This document shows, piece by piece, positions 55,157 to 63,959 of a stretch of 64,000 bases of DNA. This DNA is from Promethearchaeota archaeon (GTDB taxonomy: Archaea > Asgardarchaeota > Lokiarchaeia > Sigyniarchaeales > SOKP01): assembly GCA_019058365.1 (NCBI GenBank), contig JAHPZE010000001.1:372001-436000 (forward strand). Reading direction: 5' to 3'. The stretch's first letter is position 1. The number at the start of each line of letters is the position of its first letter. The notes under the pieces are model-generated. The model did not search any database. It worked only from the letters and a program-made list of their open reading frames with translations, and had not been told where the DNA came from. A program made the position numbers and the translations under genes.

Positions 55157-55588
55157 TTAAATAACTTGCAGTGGTCCTAGTTTTTTAATTTCATTAGTAA
55201 ATTCAGTGATGACTTCAGCAAATCGCTTCCCTTCAGATGCACTTACCCATTCAAGTCTAAATCTTTTTTCAAGATTGAATATTTTTAATATTTCCTTAAA
55301 ATGTTCAAATCTATCCCTAGCAAACTCATTTCCTTTTAAGTAATGACAGTCACCGATATGACATCCTGTCACAATGACTCCATCAATACCATCTTTAAAA
55401 GCCTCCAAAATAAAAGCGGGATCTACTCTACCAGAGCACATCACTCTTACTATCCGAATAGTAGCAGGGTACTGAAAACGAGATACGCCAGCTAAATCTG
55501 CCCCAGCATAACTACACCAATTACAACAAAAACATAATATATTTGGATGGAAATCTTTTTTATTTACTTTCTTTTTTGACTTAGACAT
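55157..55588 (-). CDS. mvhD: MvhD/FlpD-family [2Fe-2S] subunit, second copy (cysteine type)
   Basis: A 143-residue paralogue of the gene at 36216. It has F-C-C-N-W-C-S-Y-A-G-A-D-L-A-G-V-S-R and V-T-G-C-H-I-G-D-C-H-Y. It follows the HdrA gene by 18 bases. Its 3' end is the origin of the fragments found through the accessory island. The cysteine at C-N-W-C and that at G-C-H-I match positions where the VhuD gene at 61548 has UGA. Confidence 0.92.
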   Translation of the reverse strand: MSKSKKKVNKKDFHPNILCFCCNWCSYAGADLAGVSRFQYPATIRIVRVMCSGRVDPAFILEAFKDGIDGVIVTGCHIGDCHYLKGNEFARDRFEHFKEILKIFNLEKRFRLEWVSASEGKRFAEVITEFTNEIKKLGPLQVI

Positions 55589-55606: not shown

Positions 55607-58600
55607 TTAAGTTTGGACAAGAAGTGCAGAAATCATAGCGTGAATTTGCTCAAAACCAAAATGTTTAATAACTATTGTTGAATTAGGACATTGTGCGCCA
55701 CATGTACCACATCCCTTACAAAGCGCAGGATTTATATGAGATTTTTTATTAGTCATTGTAAAATCTTCGAACGTTCTTTCTTTTTCTATTAATTCTATAG
55801 CATTAAATTGACAGACTTCTACACAGCTTCCACAGCCAATGCAATTTTCTTCTATTACAACCGCTACAAGTCCAGATGTTACAAGCTTTTCAGCACTTAA
55901 AATTTTAACTGCTTGAGCAGCAGCTCCATTGGATTGTGCAATTGATTCTCGAAGATCTTTAGGTGAATGTGCACTTCCACATAAATATATACCATCTGTA
56001 GCAAAATCAATTGGTCTCAATTTAACATGTGCTTCCAAAAAGAATTTGTCCTCATTAAGTGGCACTTTTAACATTTTTGCTAGCTCTTCATTTTCTTTTA
56101 TAGGTGCTACGAGACCAGTACTTAGTACGACTAAATCAGGATTTATTTCAAGGGCTCCTAAATCTGGATTATTGATTTTAATTTTTAATCTTTTATTTTT
56201 AATAGTTAATTCTGGAGGTTTAGATTCATCAAATCTAAGAAATATAACCTTTTTATCTCGTGCTAAGTTATAATATTTTTCTTTAAAACCATATGTTCGG
56301 ATATCACGATATAGAATTACTATTTCTAAATTAGGATTGATTTCTTTTGCTTTTAGCGCATTTTTAATAGCTTCTGAACAACAGATTCTACTACAATAAG
56401 GGTGATCTTCATTTCTAGATCCAACGCATTGAATCATAGCTATTGATTTCAATCCTTTTATTTTATCCGTAGTAAAAAGATCTTTTTCAAATTCGGTTTG
56501 GGATATAATTCTTTGATCTTTCCCGAAACCATATTCTTTTGGTTGATATTCTTTTGCCCCTGTGGCTACAATAATTATTCCATGGTCTAGATCAACACTT
56601 TTACTATTATTTCCATAACTTATGTTTGTGGAAAAATTCCCTATATATCCTGAAATTGAATTAATTTGAGCATTTTTAAATACGTGAATGAATTGATTAT
56701 TTTCAACTTTTTTAATTAGGTTTCCAAGATACTCCTGAATATCATCATTTTCAAGGGTTTGATAAATATTTTTGGCAAATCCACCTAGAGAATCTTCCTT
56801 TTCAATTAAAAAAACTTCATAACCTTGAGAAGCCAGATTTAATGCTGCTGACATTCCAGATACACCCCCTCCTATGATGAGACCCTTACTTATTACAGTA
56901 ATTTCTTGTTCCTGCAACGGGATTAATTGGCTAGCCTTTGCTATTGACATACGCAATAAATCTTTTGATTTTGCTGTAGCTTTTTCAGGTTCATGCATAT
57001 GAACCCATGAACATTGATCTCGAATATTTACCATTTCAAAAAGATATTTATTCAAACCAGCTTCCCTAATTGTTGCTTGAAATAATGGTTCATGTGTTCT
57101 TGGAGTACATGAGGCAACAATAACTCTATTAAGTTGATTTTTTTCAATTTTTTCTTTAATATTTGTTTGGGTATCTGCTGAACAAGTATACAAATTATGT
57201 TCAGCATAAACAACATTGGGCAATGTTTTAACGTATTCAACTACATTAGGAACATCAACAACTCCACCAATATTTATCCCGCAATGGCATATAAATACCC
57301 CTATTCGCGGGTGTTGACCACTTACATCTAATTCTTCGGGAAGTTCTTTCTTAGAGACTAATTTATTTCTTGCTTCTGATAGAAGAACATTTACATATCC
57401 AGCAGCAGCACTAGCTTCAATAACGGTTTCTGGAATATCTTTTGGTGTTGCGAAAGACCCACAAACATAAATTCCAGGTCTTGAAGTCTCTACTGGGTTA
57501 AAGGTTCCAGTTTTACAAAACCCATATTCATTTAACTGGATATTTAATTTCTGTGCTAATTCTTTTGCTTTTTGATTAGGTTGCATTCCAACGGAAAGGA
57601 CGACTAGATTAAAAATTTCTTTAACAATTTTTCCATTTCCTGTTTCATAATAAACCTTTAAATCTTTAGAGTCCGGAATTTCTTTAATAGAAGAAATTCT
57701 GCGTCTGATATATCTTATTCCATACTCATTCTTCGCTCGTTCAATATATTTATCAAAATCTTTACCATATGCTCTGATATCCATTGTAAAAATTGTTGGT
57801 TCTATAATATTCATGTGCTCTTTTGCTATTACTGCTTCTTTTGTTGTATACATGCAACACACAGAAGAGCAGTAATCAATTCTATGCTTTCTATCTCTTG
57901 AACCTATACAATGTAAAAAAGCAATTTTTTTGGGGATAATCCCATCAGAAGGGCGAATTATTAAACCAGAATGTGGTCCACTAGCACTGAGTATACGTTC
58001 AAATTCAATACTAGTAATCACATTTAAATGCTTACCGTAACCCAATTCCGTTAAAGGAGTAGGATCATATTCATCAAATCCAATTGCTAATACTACAGCT
58101 CCTACATTAAGGTTAATTAAACTATCTTGAAGTTCATAATTTATAGCTTTTGCTTTACATATTCCTTTACAAATACCACAACCTATACATTTTTGTTTAT
58201 TAATTGAGAAAACTAATGGAACTGCTTGAGGAAATTTCACAGAAATTGCTGCTTTGTTAGAAAGCTTTTCATTAAAAAAATCAATAGCCTCTATAGGACA
58301 TTGTTGAGCACACAAACCGCACCCTGTACATTTATTCTGATCCAAACGAAGGGTTGTTTGAGTTAAATGAACATTAAAATTTCCTGGAACACCTTCAATT
58401 TTTTCAATTGAGGAATTAATTAAAATATCTATATTTTCATGTCGACCAGTTTGTACTAATTTTGGGGCAAGAATACATATTGCACAGTCATTAGTTGGAA
58501 ATGTTTTATCCAATTGAGACATAGTTCCTCCAATACTGGTTGTAGATTCTGCTAGATATACTTTATAGCCTGAATCTGCTAAATCTATAGAAGTTTGAAT

Positions 58601-58648
58601 ACCAGCAATTCCACCACCAATAACTAGAACAGCTCCGACTTTCTCCAT
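55607..58648 (-). CDS. hdrA: Double-length HdrA-like flavin/iron-sulfur protein
   Basis: A 1013-residue relative of the other two double HdrA genes but more divergent. It keeps V-I-G-G-G-I-A-G-I-Q, F-P-T-N-D-C-A-I-C-I-L-A-P-K, C-T-G-C-G-L-C-A-Q-Q-C-P and C-I-G-C-G-I-C-K-G-I-C in the first half; and C-H-C-G-I-N-I-G, V-A-S-C-T-P-R-T-H-E, I-I-G-G-G-V-S-G-M-S and C-terminal ferredoxins in the second. Its D-C-A-I-C-I segment is the exact Cys counterpart of D-C-A-I-U-I in the selenocysteine-type HdrA. It overlaps HdrCB by one base. Confidence 0.92.
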   Translation of the reverse strand: MEKVGAVLVIGGGIAGIQTSIDLADSGYKVYLAESTTSIGGTMSQLDKTFPTNDCAICILAPKLVQTGRHENIDILINSSIEKIEGVPGNFNVHLTQTTLRLDQNKCTGCGLCAQQCPIEAIDFFNEKLSNKAAISVKFPQAVPLVFSINKQKCIGCGICKGICKAKAINYELQDSLINLNVGAVVLAIGFDEYDPTPLTELGYGKHLNVITSIEFERILSASGPHSGLIIRPSDGIIPKKIAFLHCIGSRDRKHRIDYCSSVCCMYTTKEAVIAKEHMNIIEPTIFTMDIRAYGKDFDKYIERAKNEYGIRYIRRRISSIKEIPDSKDLKVYYETGNGKIVKEIFNLVVLSVGMQPNQKAKELAQKLNIQLNEYGFCKTGTFNPVETSRPGIYVCGSFATPKDIPETVIEASAAAGYVNVLLSEARNKLVSKKELPEELDVSGQHPRIGVFICHCGINIGGVVDVPNVVEYVKTLPNVVYAEHNLYTCSADTQTNIKEKIEKNQLNRVIVASCTPRTHEPLFQATIREAGLNKYLFEMVNIRDQCSWVHMHEPEKATAKSKDLLRMSIAKASQLIPLQEQEITVISKGLIIGGGVSGMSAALNLASQGYEVFLIEKEDSLGGFAKNIYQTLENDDIQEYLGNLIKKVENNQFIHVFKNAQINSISGYIGNFSTNISYGNNSKSVDLDHGIIIVATGAKEYQPKEYGFGKDQRIISQTEFEKDLFTTDKIKGLKSIAMIQCVGSRNEDHPYCSRICCSEAIKNALKAKEINPNLEIVILYRDIRTYGFKEKYYNLARDKKVIFLRFDESKPPELTIKNKRLKIKINNPDLGALEINPDLVVLSTGLVAPIKENEELAKMLKVPLNEDKFFLEAHVKLRPIDFATDGIYLCGSAHSPKDLRESIAQSNGAAAQAVKILSAEKLVTSGLVAVVIEENCIGCGSCVEVCQFNAIELIEKERTFEDFTMTNKKSHINPALCKGCGTCGAQCPNSTIVIKHFGFEQIHAMISALLVQT

Positions 58649-59925
58649 TACTTCTCCTCAATATTATAATTAGGTTCTATTAATGTGATCATATTCACTA
58701 AAAATTCTGAAAAATCTATAATTTCTATAGAAGAGAAATCATCATAGTCTTTTTTTAGACAGTTCAAATGCATTCGACATTTTGGACAAGCTGTAATCAT
58801 TTTAGTTCCAACAGCTTTAGCTTCTAACAAACGCTTATATCGTAAAGCTTTTGATCGTTCATTACAATTCATCCAAGAATTTACTCCACAACAATAAGAA
58901 TTTTCTTTATTATGCGCCATTTCTTTAAAATCATAACCAATAGCCTTCAAATATTTGAAGATTTCTCGGACATTCTCAACTATTTTATTATCCTTAGGTA
59001 AAAATCTACTTAATCTACAAGGATCATGAAAAGTAAATTGAATTAGTTCATTAGATTCATTGGGGTTTTTAAATTGAACTTTTCCTTGCTTCCATTTATC
59101 ATAGATATATTCAATTATATGTTTAACTTCAAATTTTTCATTAAAATCTTCAAATAATTTTGGATAATCAATTTTAAATGTTCTATAACATTCAGCACAT
59201 GCTGTTACTATATGTGTAATTCCTGCTTTATCAAACAGTTTAATATTTTTTTTCGCTAATTCAATAAAGCTTTCGAATTTTGCTTGGCCCCAATATAAAT
59301 CATGACCACAGCATACCTCATCTTTCAGAATAACTACTGGATCATTTTCTAATTGACAAATAATCTTAAGTGTGCTTTCTGCTATAGATATTGAATCTTT
59401 GAATTCATAGTTAAAGAAAGGTAAACATCCTACATAATATAAAATATTTCCTCTATCTGAAATTTTACACCCTTTTGGAATCCAATCTAAAGGTCTCTCA
59501 ATTTTAAAATTATCTTGACTCATCATTTCTGACATCAAAGGATAAATACCTTTATGAGCAATAGAACGATCAGGATTTTGAATATCTTTTAACCGCATTT
59601 TATATCTAGCAATTCTGACAATGTCAGCGAAATTTATATCTTTAGGACAATGTTGTAGGCAACTATTACACATTAAACAATCCCATAACACCCTACTATT
59701 GATTATCTCATCTTCAAAACCTTCTAATATTGTTTGAATAATTCTACTAGGTGTAAATTTTTGTACTTTACTTACTTGGCATACACCCGAGCAACGGGCA
59801 CATTGATAACATTTTTTTAGTAAGTTAGATAAATCTGGCTCGAATATTTTTTTCAAATATTCATAATTGTCATCAGAATCTGGTTCTAATTTATCGGACT
59901 TTTTACTTTCAGTTATGGTAGTCAC
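58648..59925 (-). CDS. HdrCB-like fusion protein, second copy
   Basis: A 425-residue paralogue of 39767-41047 with the same domains: C-Y-Q-C-A-R-C-S-G-V-C-Q, C-L-M-C-N-S-C-L-Q-H-C-P, Y-V-G-C-L-P-F, C-C-G-H-D, D-P-C-R-L-S-R, C-C-G-V-N-S-W-M-N-C and C-P-K-C-R. It overlaps the end of the FrhB-like gene by 17 bases, which indicates translational coupling and a shared complex. The HdrB-type domains should hold noncubane [4Fe-4S] clusters that pass electrons to a disulfide or other acceptor. Confidence 0.92.
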   Translation of the reverse strand: MTTITESKKSDKLEPDSDDNYEYLKKIFEPDLSNLLKKCYQCARCSGVCQVSKVQKFTPSRIIQTILEGFEDEIINSRVLWDCLMCNSCLQHCPKDINFADIVRIARYKMRLKDIQNPDRSIAHKGIYPLMSEMMSQDNFKIERPLDWIPKGCKISDRGNILYYVGCLPFFNYEFKDSISIAESTLKIICQLENDPVVILKDEVCCGHDLYWGQAKFESFIELAKKNIKLFDKAGITHIVTACAECYRTFKIDYPKLFEDFNEKFEVKHIIEYIYDKWKQGKVQFKNPNESNELIQFTFHDPCRLSRFLPKDNKIVENVREIFKYLKAIGYDFKEMAHNKENSYCCGVNSWMNCNERSKALRYKRLLEAKAVGTKMITACPKCRMHLNCLKKDYDDFSSIEIIDFSEFLVNMITLIEPNYNIEEK

Positions 59926-61429
59926 TCCTCTCTTTTTCTTCTTTTAGTTCAATTGGTTTACAATTTTTTCTCTTAGTACCAGCAATTCTTTCTAATAAGG
60001 ATTGCCCCGGTTTAACATCCTCTAAGCTTTTTGATTCTATTAATCCTGCATTAATTGCCTCTTTATAAAGGGTTTCACCCTTTTTATTTCGTGTAATCAC
60101 TGTAGACCACCCACTAGGGGACCCTATTGATCCTACAGAAATATCAGCATAATCGGAGGTCAAGTCTTCGCAATAGTGACAATTATGGCGAGCATAGGAT
60201 TTGACTTCATTTAAGGGTACGTTTAAATCTTCACCCGAATCTAAATAAATGATAAATTTCCCACCACTTATATCCATTTTCGTAACTTTATTAAAATCTG
60301 ATTGGAACTTTTCATTGATTAAGTTAAGAACACCCTCATAAGGAAAAGATTCCATACAAAAAAGCCCTATTCGATATTTAATGTTTGTAAAAAATGGTAG
60401 TCCACTCGGAAATAAAGTACCTTTTTCTAAAGCATTCATCATACAGGGAACGCCTACAACTGCAATGTTTTCATACTTTTTTGTTTCATCTATAATACTT
60501 AAAGTCGAGGCATTAGCGTATTTAGTGCCACTTGTTTTGTAAAGATCTTTAATGTCTTCTATTATCACTGGCTCTGGTTTCCATAACTCCTTCGAATGTT
60601 GTACTGCTACAATCACATCAACTAATTTATTTTTAAGTAAGTATTCAAGCAAAGAGGTAACAATCCCACCATCTTGTCGTACTTTTTTAATATCATTCTT
60701 AGTGGTGCTCGCAGAATAGGTATTTATATAACCATTAATTTGTTCTGAGAACTTTAAGGATTTATCAAGCTTATTTATATTTTTGCCCGCTTGTTCGATT
60801 GAAAATGATCTCGGGCAAACTGAATAACATAAACCGCATTTTATGCAAATTTTATCATCTATCTCCAAAGTATCTGCTGTGGCTGTGATGGCATTCACGG
60901 GACAAATTGATGAACACCAACCACATTGACAGCATACTTCAGAATCAAACACAATAGAAACTGGTTCAAAAAAATGTTCAATAAAATCATCGGGGAGATC
61001 TTTAACTTGATAGCGATAAAAATATTCTTTTTCTTCGACTTCTTTTTCTTCTCCCTTTATTTTCTTGATAACAGTCTTAGTTTTTATATCGATAAGTTCT
61101 TCAATATATCCCTGTTCTTTAAGATAAATTACATCACGAATTACATTTTCTACAGGAAAATCTTTTACAATTTTTGCAATTTCCTCTAAAAATAATGGTT
61201 CTTTACCTTTTAATAATTCTAACACTAATTTACGCTCTGTTTCTGCATCAATCAGGGCATCTAGTATTTCATAAAATTCTTTTTCAGAATACTTTCCAGT
61301 TTTTAAAATTTCATCTTTTGCTTCGAAAAAAGCGCGAATTTGAAAATTTTCTACGGCCTTATAGGTAGCATCCATTAAATTTTTTGGAGATATTCCATTG
61401 AAATTTACGTTATTTGAAATTTGAACCAT
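59909..61429 (-). CDS. FrhB/FdhB-like F420-type subunit with N-terminal helical domain
   Basis: A 506-residue protein. The first 150 residues are helical with a winged-helix-like pattern (L-F-L-E-E-I-A-K-I-V, V-I-R-D-V-I-Y-L-K-E-Q-G-Y-I-E-E). Next is a double ferredoxin with C-C-Q-C-G-W-C-S-S-I-C-P and C-I-K-C-G-L-C-Y-S-V-C-P, then the FrhB/FdhB domain (G-V-P-C-M, N-C-H-Y-C-E-D-L-T-S-D-Y-A-D-I-S-V-G). FrhB-type proteins bind FAD and exchange electrons with F420 or ferredoxin. The N-terminal extension is not usual for FrhB. It links the selenocysteine-type HdrA/VhuD to the HdrCB array. Confidence 0.88.
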   Translation of the reverse strand: MVQISNNVNFNGISPKNLMDATYKAVENFQIRAFFEAKDEILKTGKYSEKEFYEILDALIDAETERKLVLELLKGKEPLFLEEIAKIVKDFPVENVIRDVIYLKEQGYIEELIDIKTKTVIKKIKGEEKEVEEKEYFYRYQVKDLPDDFIEHFFEPVSIVFDSEVCCQCGWCSSICPVNAITATADTLEIDDKICIKCGLCYSVCPRSFSIEQAGKNINKLDKSLKFSEQINGYINTYSASTTKNDIKKVRQDGGIVTSLLEYLLKNKLVDVIVAVQHSKELWKPEPVIIEDIKDLYKTSGTKYANASTLSIIDETKKYENIAVVGVPCMMNALEKGTLFPSGLPFFTNIKYRIGLFCMESFPYEGVLNLINEKFQSDFNKVTKMDISGGKFIIYLDSGEDLNVPLNEVKSYARHNCHYCEDLTSDYADISVGSIGSPSGWSTVITRNKKGETLYKEAINAGLIESKSLEDVKPGQSLLERIAGTKRKNCKPIELKEEKERSDYHN

Positions 61430-61490: not shown

Positions 61491-61547
61491 AAAAACCCCT
61501 TCCCTTGCAAGGTGAGTTCTCTTATAACTAATATTTTTTTATAAGAG
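61491..61547 (-). promoter_or_regulatory. Candidate archaeal SECIS / 3'-UTR stem-loops after VhuD
   Basis: In the RNA after VhuD, a stem GAGAACUC pairs with GGGUUUUU (61521-61514 with 61498-61491, three G-U pairs). Inside it, CC pairs with GG, leaving a six-base UUGCAA loop and an asymmetric internal loop of one A opposite GAAG. A GAA/A internal loop under a short C/G stem is the archaeal SECIS hallmark. A second stem with perfect CUCUUAUAA/UUAUAAGAG pairing (61547-61519) overlaps its 5' edge, so the two may be alternatives. The gap to the next gene is longer than elsewhere in this operon. A T-tract also makes terminator function possible. Confidence 0.5.
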
Positions 61548-62009
61548 TCATTCTACAGGGGTAGTTATAACTTGTTTTGTTTCAATTTTTGACTCTTCTT
61601 CTACTAAGTTAAGTGGATTTGGTCCAGCTTTGCTTACTTTTTTATAAGCGTCCTCGACAGATTCGACAAATTTCCCAGCATCTCCTCCACTTACCCAATA
61701 CATGTTTATTCTCTGATTTCCGAAACCTCTTGATTCTAAGATTCTGTTTGCTAATTCTACATGTCTTTCGGCTGTGAAATTACCATTTTTAAATTGACAT
61801 TCATTGGGTCGTCAGCCTACAATCATGACACCATCAGCTCCCGAGCGAATACTGTAGAGAATATGCTTAACATCAACTCTACCAGTACATTTTACTTTGA
61901 TTATTTTTACTGCAGGTGTATACTTCAATCGAGAAACTCCCGCTAAATCAGCAGCACTATAACCTCATTTTAAACATGCAAAAATAATCATTTTATACCT
62001 ATTTTTCAT
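61548..62009 (-). CDS. vhuD: VhuD/MvhD-family subunit with two predicted selenocysteines (UGA)
   Basis: A 153-residue frame with UGA at residue 15 (61965-61967) and residue 66 (61812-61814). It reads F-A-C-L-K-U-G-Y-S-A-A-D-L-A-G-V-S-R and I-V-G-U-R-P-N-E-C-Q-F. The paralogues in this window have Cys at the same points (F-C-C-N-W-C-S-Y-A-G-A-D and S-G-C-H-I-G-D-C-H-Y), so both UGAs are best read as Sec and no frameshift is needed. VhuD with Sec is known in methanogens and reported for Lokiarchaeota. The stop is UGA at 61548-61550, followed two codons later by UAA; if the last UGA were also Sec the protein would gain three residues. A GGAGGTG site lies in the end of HdrA. Confidence 0.85.
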
Positions 62010-62015
62010 ACCTGT

Positions 62016-63959
62016 TTAAACACCTCCGAGAAGACCGTCAATTTCAGCAAATAATTGATGATCTCGATAATATCTGATATCAATTGCTTGAGTAGGACAA
62101 CATGTAGCACAAATACCGCATCCGTCACAATTTGTCTCATCAATAAATGCACCGATATCCTTCTCAATTCTAATGGCGTTTTTGGGACACTCTTTTTCGC
62201 ATCGTCCACATGAAATACAGAATTCGCTGTTCACTTCAGCAGTAATTAGTTCTATATCGATTTGTCCTGGTGCTGTTAACTCAGCTGCTTTGCTAGCCGC
62301 TGCCCTCGCTTGAGAAACGGAATAAGAAATATTTTTTGGTCCTTGAGCAAATCCAGCTATAAAAATTCCTTTTGATTTCGTTTCTTGCGGCATGAGTCCG
62401 AAATGGGATTCTGTGAGGAACCCGTATGTATTAGTATCAAGGTTTAGTACTTGTACAATCTGATTAGTACCTTTTGAAGGGAGTGCTGCTGAGGATAATA
62501 CGACTAAATCTGCATCAATTATTACGATCTTATCTGTTAGTGTTGAATAGACGCGAACCTTCACATTTTTAGTTTCAGGATCTTCAGAGATTTCCCCTAC
62601 TTTTCCGCGAATCATTTTAATTCCTACATCTTTAGCTCGTTCATAGTACTCTTCAAATCCTTTTTCGGGAGTTCTTATATCAATATAACAGATTGTAATA
62701 TTCGCATCGGGAAATTCTTCGAGCAATAACCTTCCGTTTTTTAGAGCGAGCATGCAACACACACCACTACAATAAGTTCGTTCATTTTCTCGACTTCCTA
62801 CGCATTGTATAAATACAATTTCTTTTAACTTCTTATTATCAGAAATTCGATGAACATGACCTTCAAGTGGACCATTTGGAGCAAGTATTCGTTCTAACTG
62901 AACTTGAGTTATGACATTCTCAAATTCTCCGTATCCATATTCACCAAAAGGTTCGTAGATATCCCATCCAGTTGCTATAATGATTGTACCAACTTCAATA
63001 TCAACTTCTGTAGGCACTTGACTGAAATCAATGGCATCTAATTCACAGGCATCTACACAGGAAAAACACTCAATACACGCATCCCTGTCGATATCATATA
63101 GAAACGGTACTGCTTGACCAAATGGAATATCAATTGCTTTTCGCGCTCCCAAATGTTCATCAAAATAATTGCTCACATATAAAGGACAAACCTCACTGCA
63201 TGCACCACATCCATTACAGTCGTCCGTCGTATATCGCGGTTTCCTTTCAATAGTTACTTTATAGTTCCCGACATATCCTTCTACTTTTTTTACTTCACTA
63301 TAGGTGACTAATTCAATATTCTCATTTCTATTAACTTCTAACATTTTGGGACCACAAATTCATATAGCACAATCGTCTGTAGGAAAGGTTCTGTCTAACT
63401 GAGACATTCTCCCTCCTATTGTAGTTTTTTGATCAACTAAATATACCTTGATGCCTTGATTCGCAAGATCGAGAGCCGCATTCATACCACAAATCCCAGC
63501 TCCAATAACTAATGAGGCTTTTGTAACTGGAACTGTCTTAATTGGCACTGGCTCTAATCGTTTTACTCTTTCAATTCCACTTTTCACTAAGATTTTTGCC
63601 TTCTCTGTAGCTTCTTCTTTACTATCTGTGCACCATGAACACTGTTCACGAACATTTACCATTTGAAAGTAGTATGGATTTAGGGCAGTTTTAGCTATTG
63701 TCCCCCGATAAATAACCTCATGTGTACGTGGGGTTCAAGCAGATGCTACAATTCGGTCTAGATTTTTTTCTTTAATATCTTTAATAATTTCATTTTGAGC
63801 ATTATCGGTGCATAGAAAAGCATTTTTTTTAGCAATTACGACATCATCAAAAGTCTTACTTACGTATTCTACAAGCTCATCGCAATCTACTTTAGTCCTA
63901 ATATTTACTCCTCATTGACAAGCATAGTATCCAATCCGATGATTTTCATTATTATTCAT
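62016..63959 (-). CDS. hdrA: HdrA-type flavin subunit with three predicted selenocysteines (UGA)
   Basis: A 647-residue standard-length HdrA, readable end to end only if three UGA codons are read through. Sec16 (63912-63914) lies in C-Q-U-G-V-N against C-H-C-G-I-N; Sec75 (63735-63737) in V-A-S-A-U-T-P-R-T-H-E against V-A-S-C-T-P-R-T-H-E; Sec200 (63360-63362) in D-C-A-I-U-I-C-G-P-K against D-C-A-I-C-I-L-A-P-K. All other motifs (V-I-G-A-G-I-C-G-M-N, C-N-G-C-G-A-C, C-I-E-C-F-S-C, C-I-S-C-G-R-C, C-D-G-C-G-I-C) are intact. HdrA carries FAD and 4Fe-4S clusters for electron bifurcation; Sec-HdrA is known in methanogens. The start ATG overlaps the upstream gene by 8 bases. It ends 6 bases before VhuD. 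Confidence 0.85.

What the first reader, a model, noticed from the sequence alone, without database searches (positions are those of the whole stretch)
61548..62009. VhuD with two UGA codons aligned to cysteines of MvhD paralogues
The two UGAs sit in F-A-C-L-K-U-G and V-G-U-R-P, where the two intact MvhD genes of the window have Cys. Both electron-transfer ligand positions would be Sec, so the [2Fe-2S] or hydrogenase-contacting region has an unusual ligand set. Together with the neighbouring Sec-HdrA this gives five Sec in two adjacent genes, arguing for a selenium-dependent Hdr/Vhu branch alongside the two cysteine-type branches.
Basis: partly seen in the sequence, partly recalled or inferred. 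Interest (0 to 1): 0.88.

Follow-up and report, generated by a model that had tools for sequence, protein, structure and literature searches.

The report
Two-selenocysteine electron-transfer protein in Lokiarchaea
A small iron-sulfur electron-transfer protein of a Lokiarchaeon really does carry two selenocysteines where its relatives have cysteine; this was already described for Lokiarchaea and methanogens, so the gene is genuine but not a new kind of thing.

Summary
On the minus strand, 62009-61548 encodes an MvhD/VhuD-type (FlpD) protein with in-frame UGAs at codons 15 and 66. Both are UGA in 48 of 48 Lokiarchaeia orthologues; every other relative read has Cys or UGA there. The stretches after each UGA evolve as coding sequence (dN/dS about 0.10 and 0.16). 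Directly downstream lies a eukaryote-like SECIS (61562-61495) whose AUGA core contains the vhuD stop codon. The genome has SepSecS, PSTK-like and SelB-like genes, two UGA-containing selD genes and a tRNA-Sec gene.

Two-Sec VhuD, the SECIS shared by hdrA and vhuD, and the stop/SECIS overlap are all in the literature, and a solved VhuD carries non-standard residues at exactly these two positions. So: already known.

Which of five conserved Cys/Sec positions bind the [2Fe-2S] cluster could not be tested. A separate selenium branch is doubtful: the Sec pair shares one conserved gene run with FrhB-like, HdrCB, a Cys-only HdrA and a Cys MvhD, suggesting one F420H2-fed bifurcating complex.

By-catch: HdrA has four UGAs in most relatives (three here), and the tRNA-Sec gene carries two apparent introns.

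The parts
61548..62009 (-). vhuD/mvhD-type gene (FlpD family), 153 codons plus UGA stop, two internal UGA (Sec) codons
   Evidence: 48/48 orthologues with both UGAs
61965..61967 (-). UGA codon 15 (F-A-C-L-K-U-G), Cys in Cys-type paralogues
61812..61814 (-). UGA codon 66 (V-G-U-R-P-N-E-C), Cys in Cys-type paralogues
61495..61562 (-). eukaryote-like type I SECIS: lower stem ACCCCU/AGGGGU, core AUGA_AA, 9-bp upper stem CUCUUAUAA/UUAUAAGAG, 11-nt A-rich loop; its 5' arm is coding and its core contains the vhuD stop
61548..61550 (-). UGA stop codon of vhuD, lying inside the SECIS core
   Evidence: same in 33 of 48 orthologues
62016..63959 (-). hdrA with three UGA (Sec) codons: 16 (63914-63912), 75 (63737-63735), 200 (63362-63360)
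59909..61429 (-). FrhB/FdhB-like F420-binding subunit with two ferredoxin motifs
58648..59925 (-). fused HdrC-HdrB-like (HdrD-like) protein
55607..58648 (-). Cys-only HdrA of 1013 residues with two flavoprotein domains (type II-like)
55157..55588 (-). Cys-type MvhD (FlpD) at the end of the same run

Best explanation
This is a genuine selenoprotein gene: an MvhD/VhuD-type [2Fe-2S] electron-transfer subunit with Sec at residues 15 and 66, encoded next to a three-Sec HdrA. All five UGAs are decoded by a SelB-type elongation factor and tRNA-Sec under one eukaryote-like SECIS just behind vhuD. Translation ends at the UGA inside the SECIS core, presumably because a ribosome standing there has already unfolded the element (inferred). 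The protein most likely passes electrons within an HdrA-based electron-bifurcating complex fed by F420H2 through the FrhB-like neighbour, with Sec replacing Cys as cluster ligand or close neighbour of the cluster. Shown here: the UGAs, their conservation, the SECIS, the machinery and the gene order. Inferred: translation itself, co-transcription, cluster ligation, the electron donor and bifurcation (about 0.6 for the F420H2-fed complex; the confidence below is for the selenoprotein reading).
For: Both UGAs in 48/48 orthologues, never TGT/TGC, with dN/dS 0.096 between and 0.156 after them; Cys or UGA and nothing else at both sites in all other homologues read; SECIS with covariation beyond 500 shuffles and beyond slid pairings and a lower stem that fits its own partner best; SepSecS, selD with UGA twice, PSTK-like, SelB-like, tRNA-Sec gene; solved VhuD 9sfi_K with non-standard residues at both sites; conserved order hdrA-vhuD-frhB-hdrCB; HdrA-Sec plus VhuD-Sec match consecutive parts of the HdrA2 model.
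Against: No expression or mass data. The PSTK and SelB hits are below the NCBIfam cut-offs and the tRNA-Sec gene is interrupted twice. The SECIS stretch is not unusually stable by energy alone (z -0.96). The FrhB and bifurcation roles rest on homology.
Confidence: 0.93

Rival explanations
1. The UGAs are real stops: the gene is decayed or makes only a 14-residue peptide.
For: Standard code reads two internal stops.
Against: Both UGAs fixed in 48 orthologues and purifying selection after each; SECIS and Sec machinery present.
Confidence: 0.02
2. UGA is read as Cys, Trp or another ordinary residue through a changed code or leaky readthrough.
For: Open frame if UGA is sense.
Against: UGA ends 5 of 33 other window ORFs; internal UGAs sit only at Cys sites of redox proteins that have a SECIS; SelD and tRNA-Sec present.
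Confidence: 0.01
3. One reading: the Sec HdrA/VhuD pair is a selenium-dependent alternative to the Cys-type pairs, switched by selenium supply as with Vhu/Vhc in Methanococcus maripaludis.
For: Such switching is documented in M. maripaludis (PMC11097638); the genome has 15 FlpD genes, four with two UGAs and eleven Cys-type.
Against: Sec and Cys HdrA/MvhD lie in one same-strand run with small gaps, order kept in relatives; the Cys paralogues are only 35-38% identical and the Cys HdrA in the run has a different, two-domain architecture.
Confidence: 0.2
4. The UGA in the SECIS core is itself also recoded, adding U-L-L at the C terminus before UAA.
For: The stop is the SECIS UGA in 33/48 orthologues; here UAA follows three codons later.
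Against: In 10 of the other 15 the stop is UAA or UAG just upstream, so no extension is conserved; a ribosome at that UGA covers the SECIS (inference from general SECIS biology).
Confidence: 0.05

Closest known systems
Asgard archaeal FrhD/MvhD/VhuD selenoproteins (Huang et al. 2024, PMC11227280; first reported by Mariotti et al. 2016, not held)
   Same: Sec-VhuD next to Sec-HdrA, shared eSECIS-like element of type I, AUGA_AA variant, UGA stop overlapping the AUGA motif
   Different: Nothing essential; this is one more genome, with the codon-level conservation quantified
VhuD of methanogens (PDB 9sfi/9t1s; Methanococcus VhuD)
   Same: Two non-standard residues at exactly the two positions, E=8.5e-39 over residues 8-134; family listed with two Sec
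   Different: Methanogen SECIS is of another type (eaSECIS); there vhuD sits in an operon with the hydrogenase genes vhuGAU, here it does not
HdrA2 / type I plus type II HdrA clusters with FdhB (PMC12054007) and the Elp-Hdr complex (PMC12350162)
   Same: HdrA-Sec and VhuD-Sec match consecutive parts of the HdrA2 model; similar gene set of FrhB/FdhB, HdrBC or HdrD, two HdrA types and MvhD
   Different: Unfused, Sec-containing, no molybdopterin-type subunit seen in the run, non-methanogen host

Membership tests
FlpD / MvhD family (PF02662) | Pfam score above the curated cut-off | tested here: met
   142.1 bits against 22.3
FlpD / MvhD family (PF02662) | Conserved Cys (or Sec) at positions 12, 15, 41, 66, 71 | tested here: met
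VhuD in the strict sense (NCBIfam NF045873) | Score above the curated cut-off | tested here: not met
   153.6 bits against 215
VhuD in the strict sense (NCBIfam NF045873) | Encoded with the Vhu hydrogenase subunits | tested here: not met
   no hydrogenase gene adjacent; [NiFe] large-subunit hits lie elsewhere on the contig, without UGA
Selenoprotein genes of Asgard archaea | In-frame UGA aligned to Cys of homologues, conserved in orthologues | tested here: met
Selenoprotein genes of Asgard archaea | eSECIS-like structure near the 3' end (core GA_[G/A]A, upper stem 7-15 bp, loop 8-20 nt) | tested here: met
   9-bp stem, 11-nt loop, AUGA_AA; model
Selenoprotein genes of Asgard archaea | Sec machinery in the genome | tested here: met
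   SepSecS, SelD, PSTK-like, SelB-like, tRNA-Sec; PSTK and SelB below model cut-offs
Selenoprotein genes of Asgard archaea | Selenium present in the protein | not testable with these tools
   needs 75Se labelling or mass spectrometry
[2Fe-2S] protein with Sec ligands | Both Sec coordinate the cluster | not testable with these tools
   no coordinates available; a [2Fe-2S] cluster in MvhD is reported (PMC5861303, PMC12350162) without named ligands in the passages read

The most novel reading that the evidence does not exclude
Both Sec ligate the [2Fe-2S] cluster, giving a mixed sulfur/selenium-ligated cluster that tunes electron delivery in an F420H2-driven complex holding both a Sec-type HdrA (three to five Sec) and a two-domain Cys-type HdrA, with up to six or seven Sec decoded from one SECIS.
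Probability: 0.2. Interest if true: 0.6.

Novelty: already known. Interest (0 to 1): 0.27.

Why it matters
It confirms, with 48 orthologues, that selenium is built into core electron-transfer machinery of Lokiarchaea and is not replaced by Cys at these two sites anywhere in this orthologous group. If the Sec residues ligate the cluster, the protein would be a test case for how selenium tunes electron bifurcation. The conserved placement of Sec and Cys HdrA/MvhD pairs in one gene run makes a single mixed complex a directly testable proposal.

Tried and rejected
Pseudogene or sequencing error: rejected by 48/48 conservation and dN/dS. Changed genetic code: rejected, UGA ends other genes. The Rfam tRNA-Sec search and ARAGORN failed on the own genome; the three weak Rfam hits are Gly, Ser and Arg tRNAs; a DNA search with a congener's tRNA-Sec found the interrupted gene. 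The energy of the SECIS stretch alone is not significant (z -0.96), so the case rests on covariation. My helix-2 columns were one column off those of RNAalifold, so its 62% for helix 2 should not be used. Mariotti et al. 2016 is not held and supplementary files could not be opened, so I could not check whether this genome or its HdrA Sec count is already tabulated. No structure prediction was run, because the tool returns no coordinates and could not settle the cluster ligands.

Full report
What is there. On the minus strand, 62009-61548 reads as a 153-residue FlpD (MvhD/VhuD-type) protein with UGA at codons 15 and 66 and a UGA terminator. The two intact FlpD genes of the window, 36659-36216 and 55588-55157, have Cys at both positions. 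Six bases upstream ends a 647-codon hdrA with UGA at codons 16, 75 and 200.

Is it more than chance. All 48 Lokiarchaeia orthologues (58-93% identical) have exactly two in-frame UGAs, at the same codons, while the Cys codons 12, 41 and 71 alternate between TGT and TGC. Synonymous sites are near saturation, yet no orthologue has TGT or TGC at codons 15 or 66. Among close pairs dN/dS is 0.096 between the UGAs and 0.156 after the second, so both stretches behave as translated. More distant relatives carry Cys or UGA at each site independently: U15 with C66 in L095, L096, L099, L101 and L102; C15 with U66 in L103 and L104; both Cys in the Cys-type paralogues. No other residue was seen at these positions.

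How it is decoded. Directly behind the gene is a hairpin with core AUGA_AA, a 9-bp upper stem, an 11-nt loop beginning with a run of A, and a lower stem ACCCCU/AGGGGU. In 31 distinct sequences the scored helices show 8 pairs with changes on both sides and a covariation score of 0.299 against 0.163 in shuffles (0 of 500 reach it); sliding the partners destroys it. The lower stem fits its own partner better than partners swapped between genomes (mean 6.19 bp against 5.33, sd 0.12). This fits the type I eSECIS-like model of PMC11227280. The UGA of the core is the vhuD stop codon here and in 33 of 48 orthologues; in the rest the stop lies a few bases upstream. PMC11227280 states that UGA stops of Lokiarchaeial selenoprotein genes often overlap the AUGA motif, so this is known. 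The 6-base hdrA-vhuD gap leaves no room for a second SECIS between them, and sharing of one SECIS by hdrA and frhD is also reported there. The element would have to act on hdrA UGAs up to about 2.4 kb upstream (coordinates; inference).

Machinery. The genome has SepSecS, two neighbouring selD genes each with one UGA, a PSTK-like gene and a SelB-like gene; the last two score below the NCBIfam cut-offs. The tRNA-Sec gene lies at C34:23029-23181, just upstream of SepSecS, but is interrupted twice, which explains why Rfam and ARAGORN missed it.

What the protein most likely does. [quoted passage not shown] PMC12350162). HdrA-Sec and VhuD-Sec match residues 1-639 and 648-773 of the same fused HdrA2 model. 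The next genes are FrhB-like, fused HdrCB, a Cys-only HdrA with two flavoprotein domains, and a Cys MvhD, all on one strand with small gaps or overlaps. The order hdrA-vhuD-frhB-hdrCB is kept in the relatives as far as their contigs reach, often with a second, more distant FrhB-like gene added; two of them (L056, L061) also reach the long HdrA. No hydrogenase gene is adjacent. Similar clusters with type I plus type II HdrA and FdhB are described for methane-metabolizing archaea and thought to use F420H2 (PMC12054007). I therefore favour one F420H2-fed bifurcating complex containing both Sec and Cys subunits (inference, about 60%) over a separate selenium branch (about 20%). What the HdrB site reduces in a Lokiarchaeon is not known from this work.

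Ligands. Five positions are Cys/Sec in all homologues read. If the four cluster ligands come from these five, at least one Sec is a ligand; nothing here says both are. The closest solved relative, 9sfi_K, has non-standard residues at both sites, shown as X by the search and taken by me to be Sec, so the question can be answered from coordinates that were not available to me.

Known or new. Two Sec in VhuD is listed as experimentally verified (PMC13188914), and Sec-FrhD/VhuD is widespread in Lokiarchaeia (PMC11227280). From memory, Mariotti et al. 2016 already reported Lokiarchaeal selenoprotein families with multiple Sec; that paper is not held. Verdict: already known. Because the NCBIfam VhuD cut-off is not reached and no Vhu hydrogenase is adjacent, I file it as an FlpD/MvhD-family selenoprotein rather than as VhuD in the strict sense.

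By-products. Of 17 HdrA relatives read, 14 have four UGAs (codons 16, 50, 75, 200), L073 has a fifth at 301, L068 has three, and L058 has a disrupted frame. The window's gene has Cys at codon 50. The tRNA-Sec insertions are described under things noticed in passing.

Noticed in passing
G000:C34:23029-23181 (+), loci L139 and L185 (same genome, outside the window); relatives L151-L186: The tRNA-Sec gene carries two insertions against intact congeners, about 34 nt in the D arm and about 30 nt in the T arm, with conserved borders and a variable inner hairpin across many relatives: apparent introns. By extent of match, Lokiarchaeia genomes show none, D-arm only, D plus T arm, or anticodon-loop plus T-arm interruption. 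Only a single T-arm intron is reported for Lokiarchaeota in the papers read (PMC5330540, PMC9499178), so the D-arm and anticodon-loop ones may be new. Splice motifs were not tested.
   Followed up: partly
62016-63959 (-); L058-L074: HdrA has four in-frame UGAs (codons 16, 50, 75, 200) in 14 of 17 relatives, five in L073 and three here, where codon 50 is Cys. The review inventory lists one Sec for HdrA and at most 2-3 for any family, so a four- to five-Sec HdrA is richer than listed there.
   Followed up: partly
61512-61502 (-): A small extra hairpin (CCUUGCAAGGG) recurs on the 3' side of the SECIS between core and lower stem in most orthologues, with some varied pairs; the SECIS model read does not mention it.
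   Followed up: partly
own genome: L006 (C9:90767), L007 (C21:106924), L012 (C9:30439): Three further FlpD paralogues also have two UGAs at the same sites; L006 and L012 end in UAG directly before a SECIS-like AUGA.
   Followed up: partly
G000:C30:28235-31818 (-): Two selD genes, each with one UGA, lie about 2 kb apart on the same strand.
   Followed up: no
L095, L096, L099, L101, L102 and L103, L104: Relatives with only one of the two UGAs, either codon 15 or codon 66, the other being Cys: natural intermediates for testing what each Sec does.
   Followed up: no
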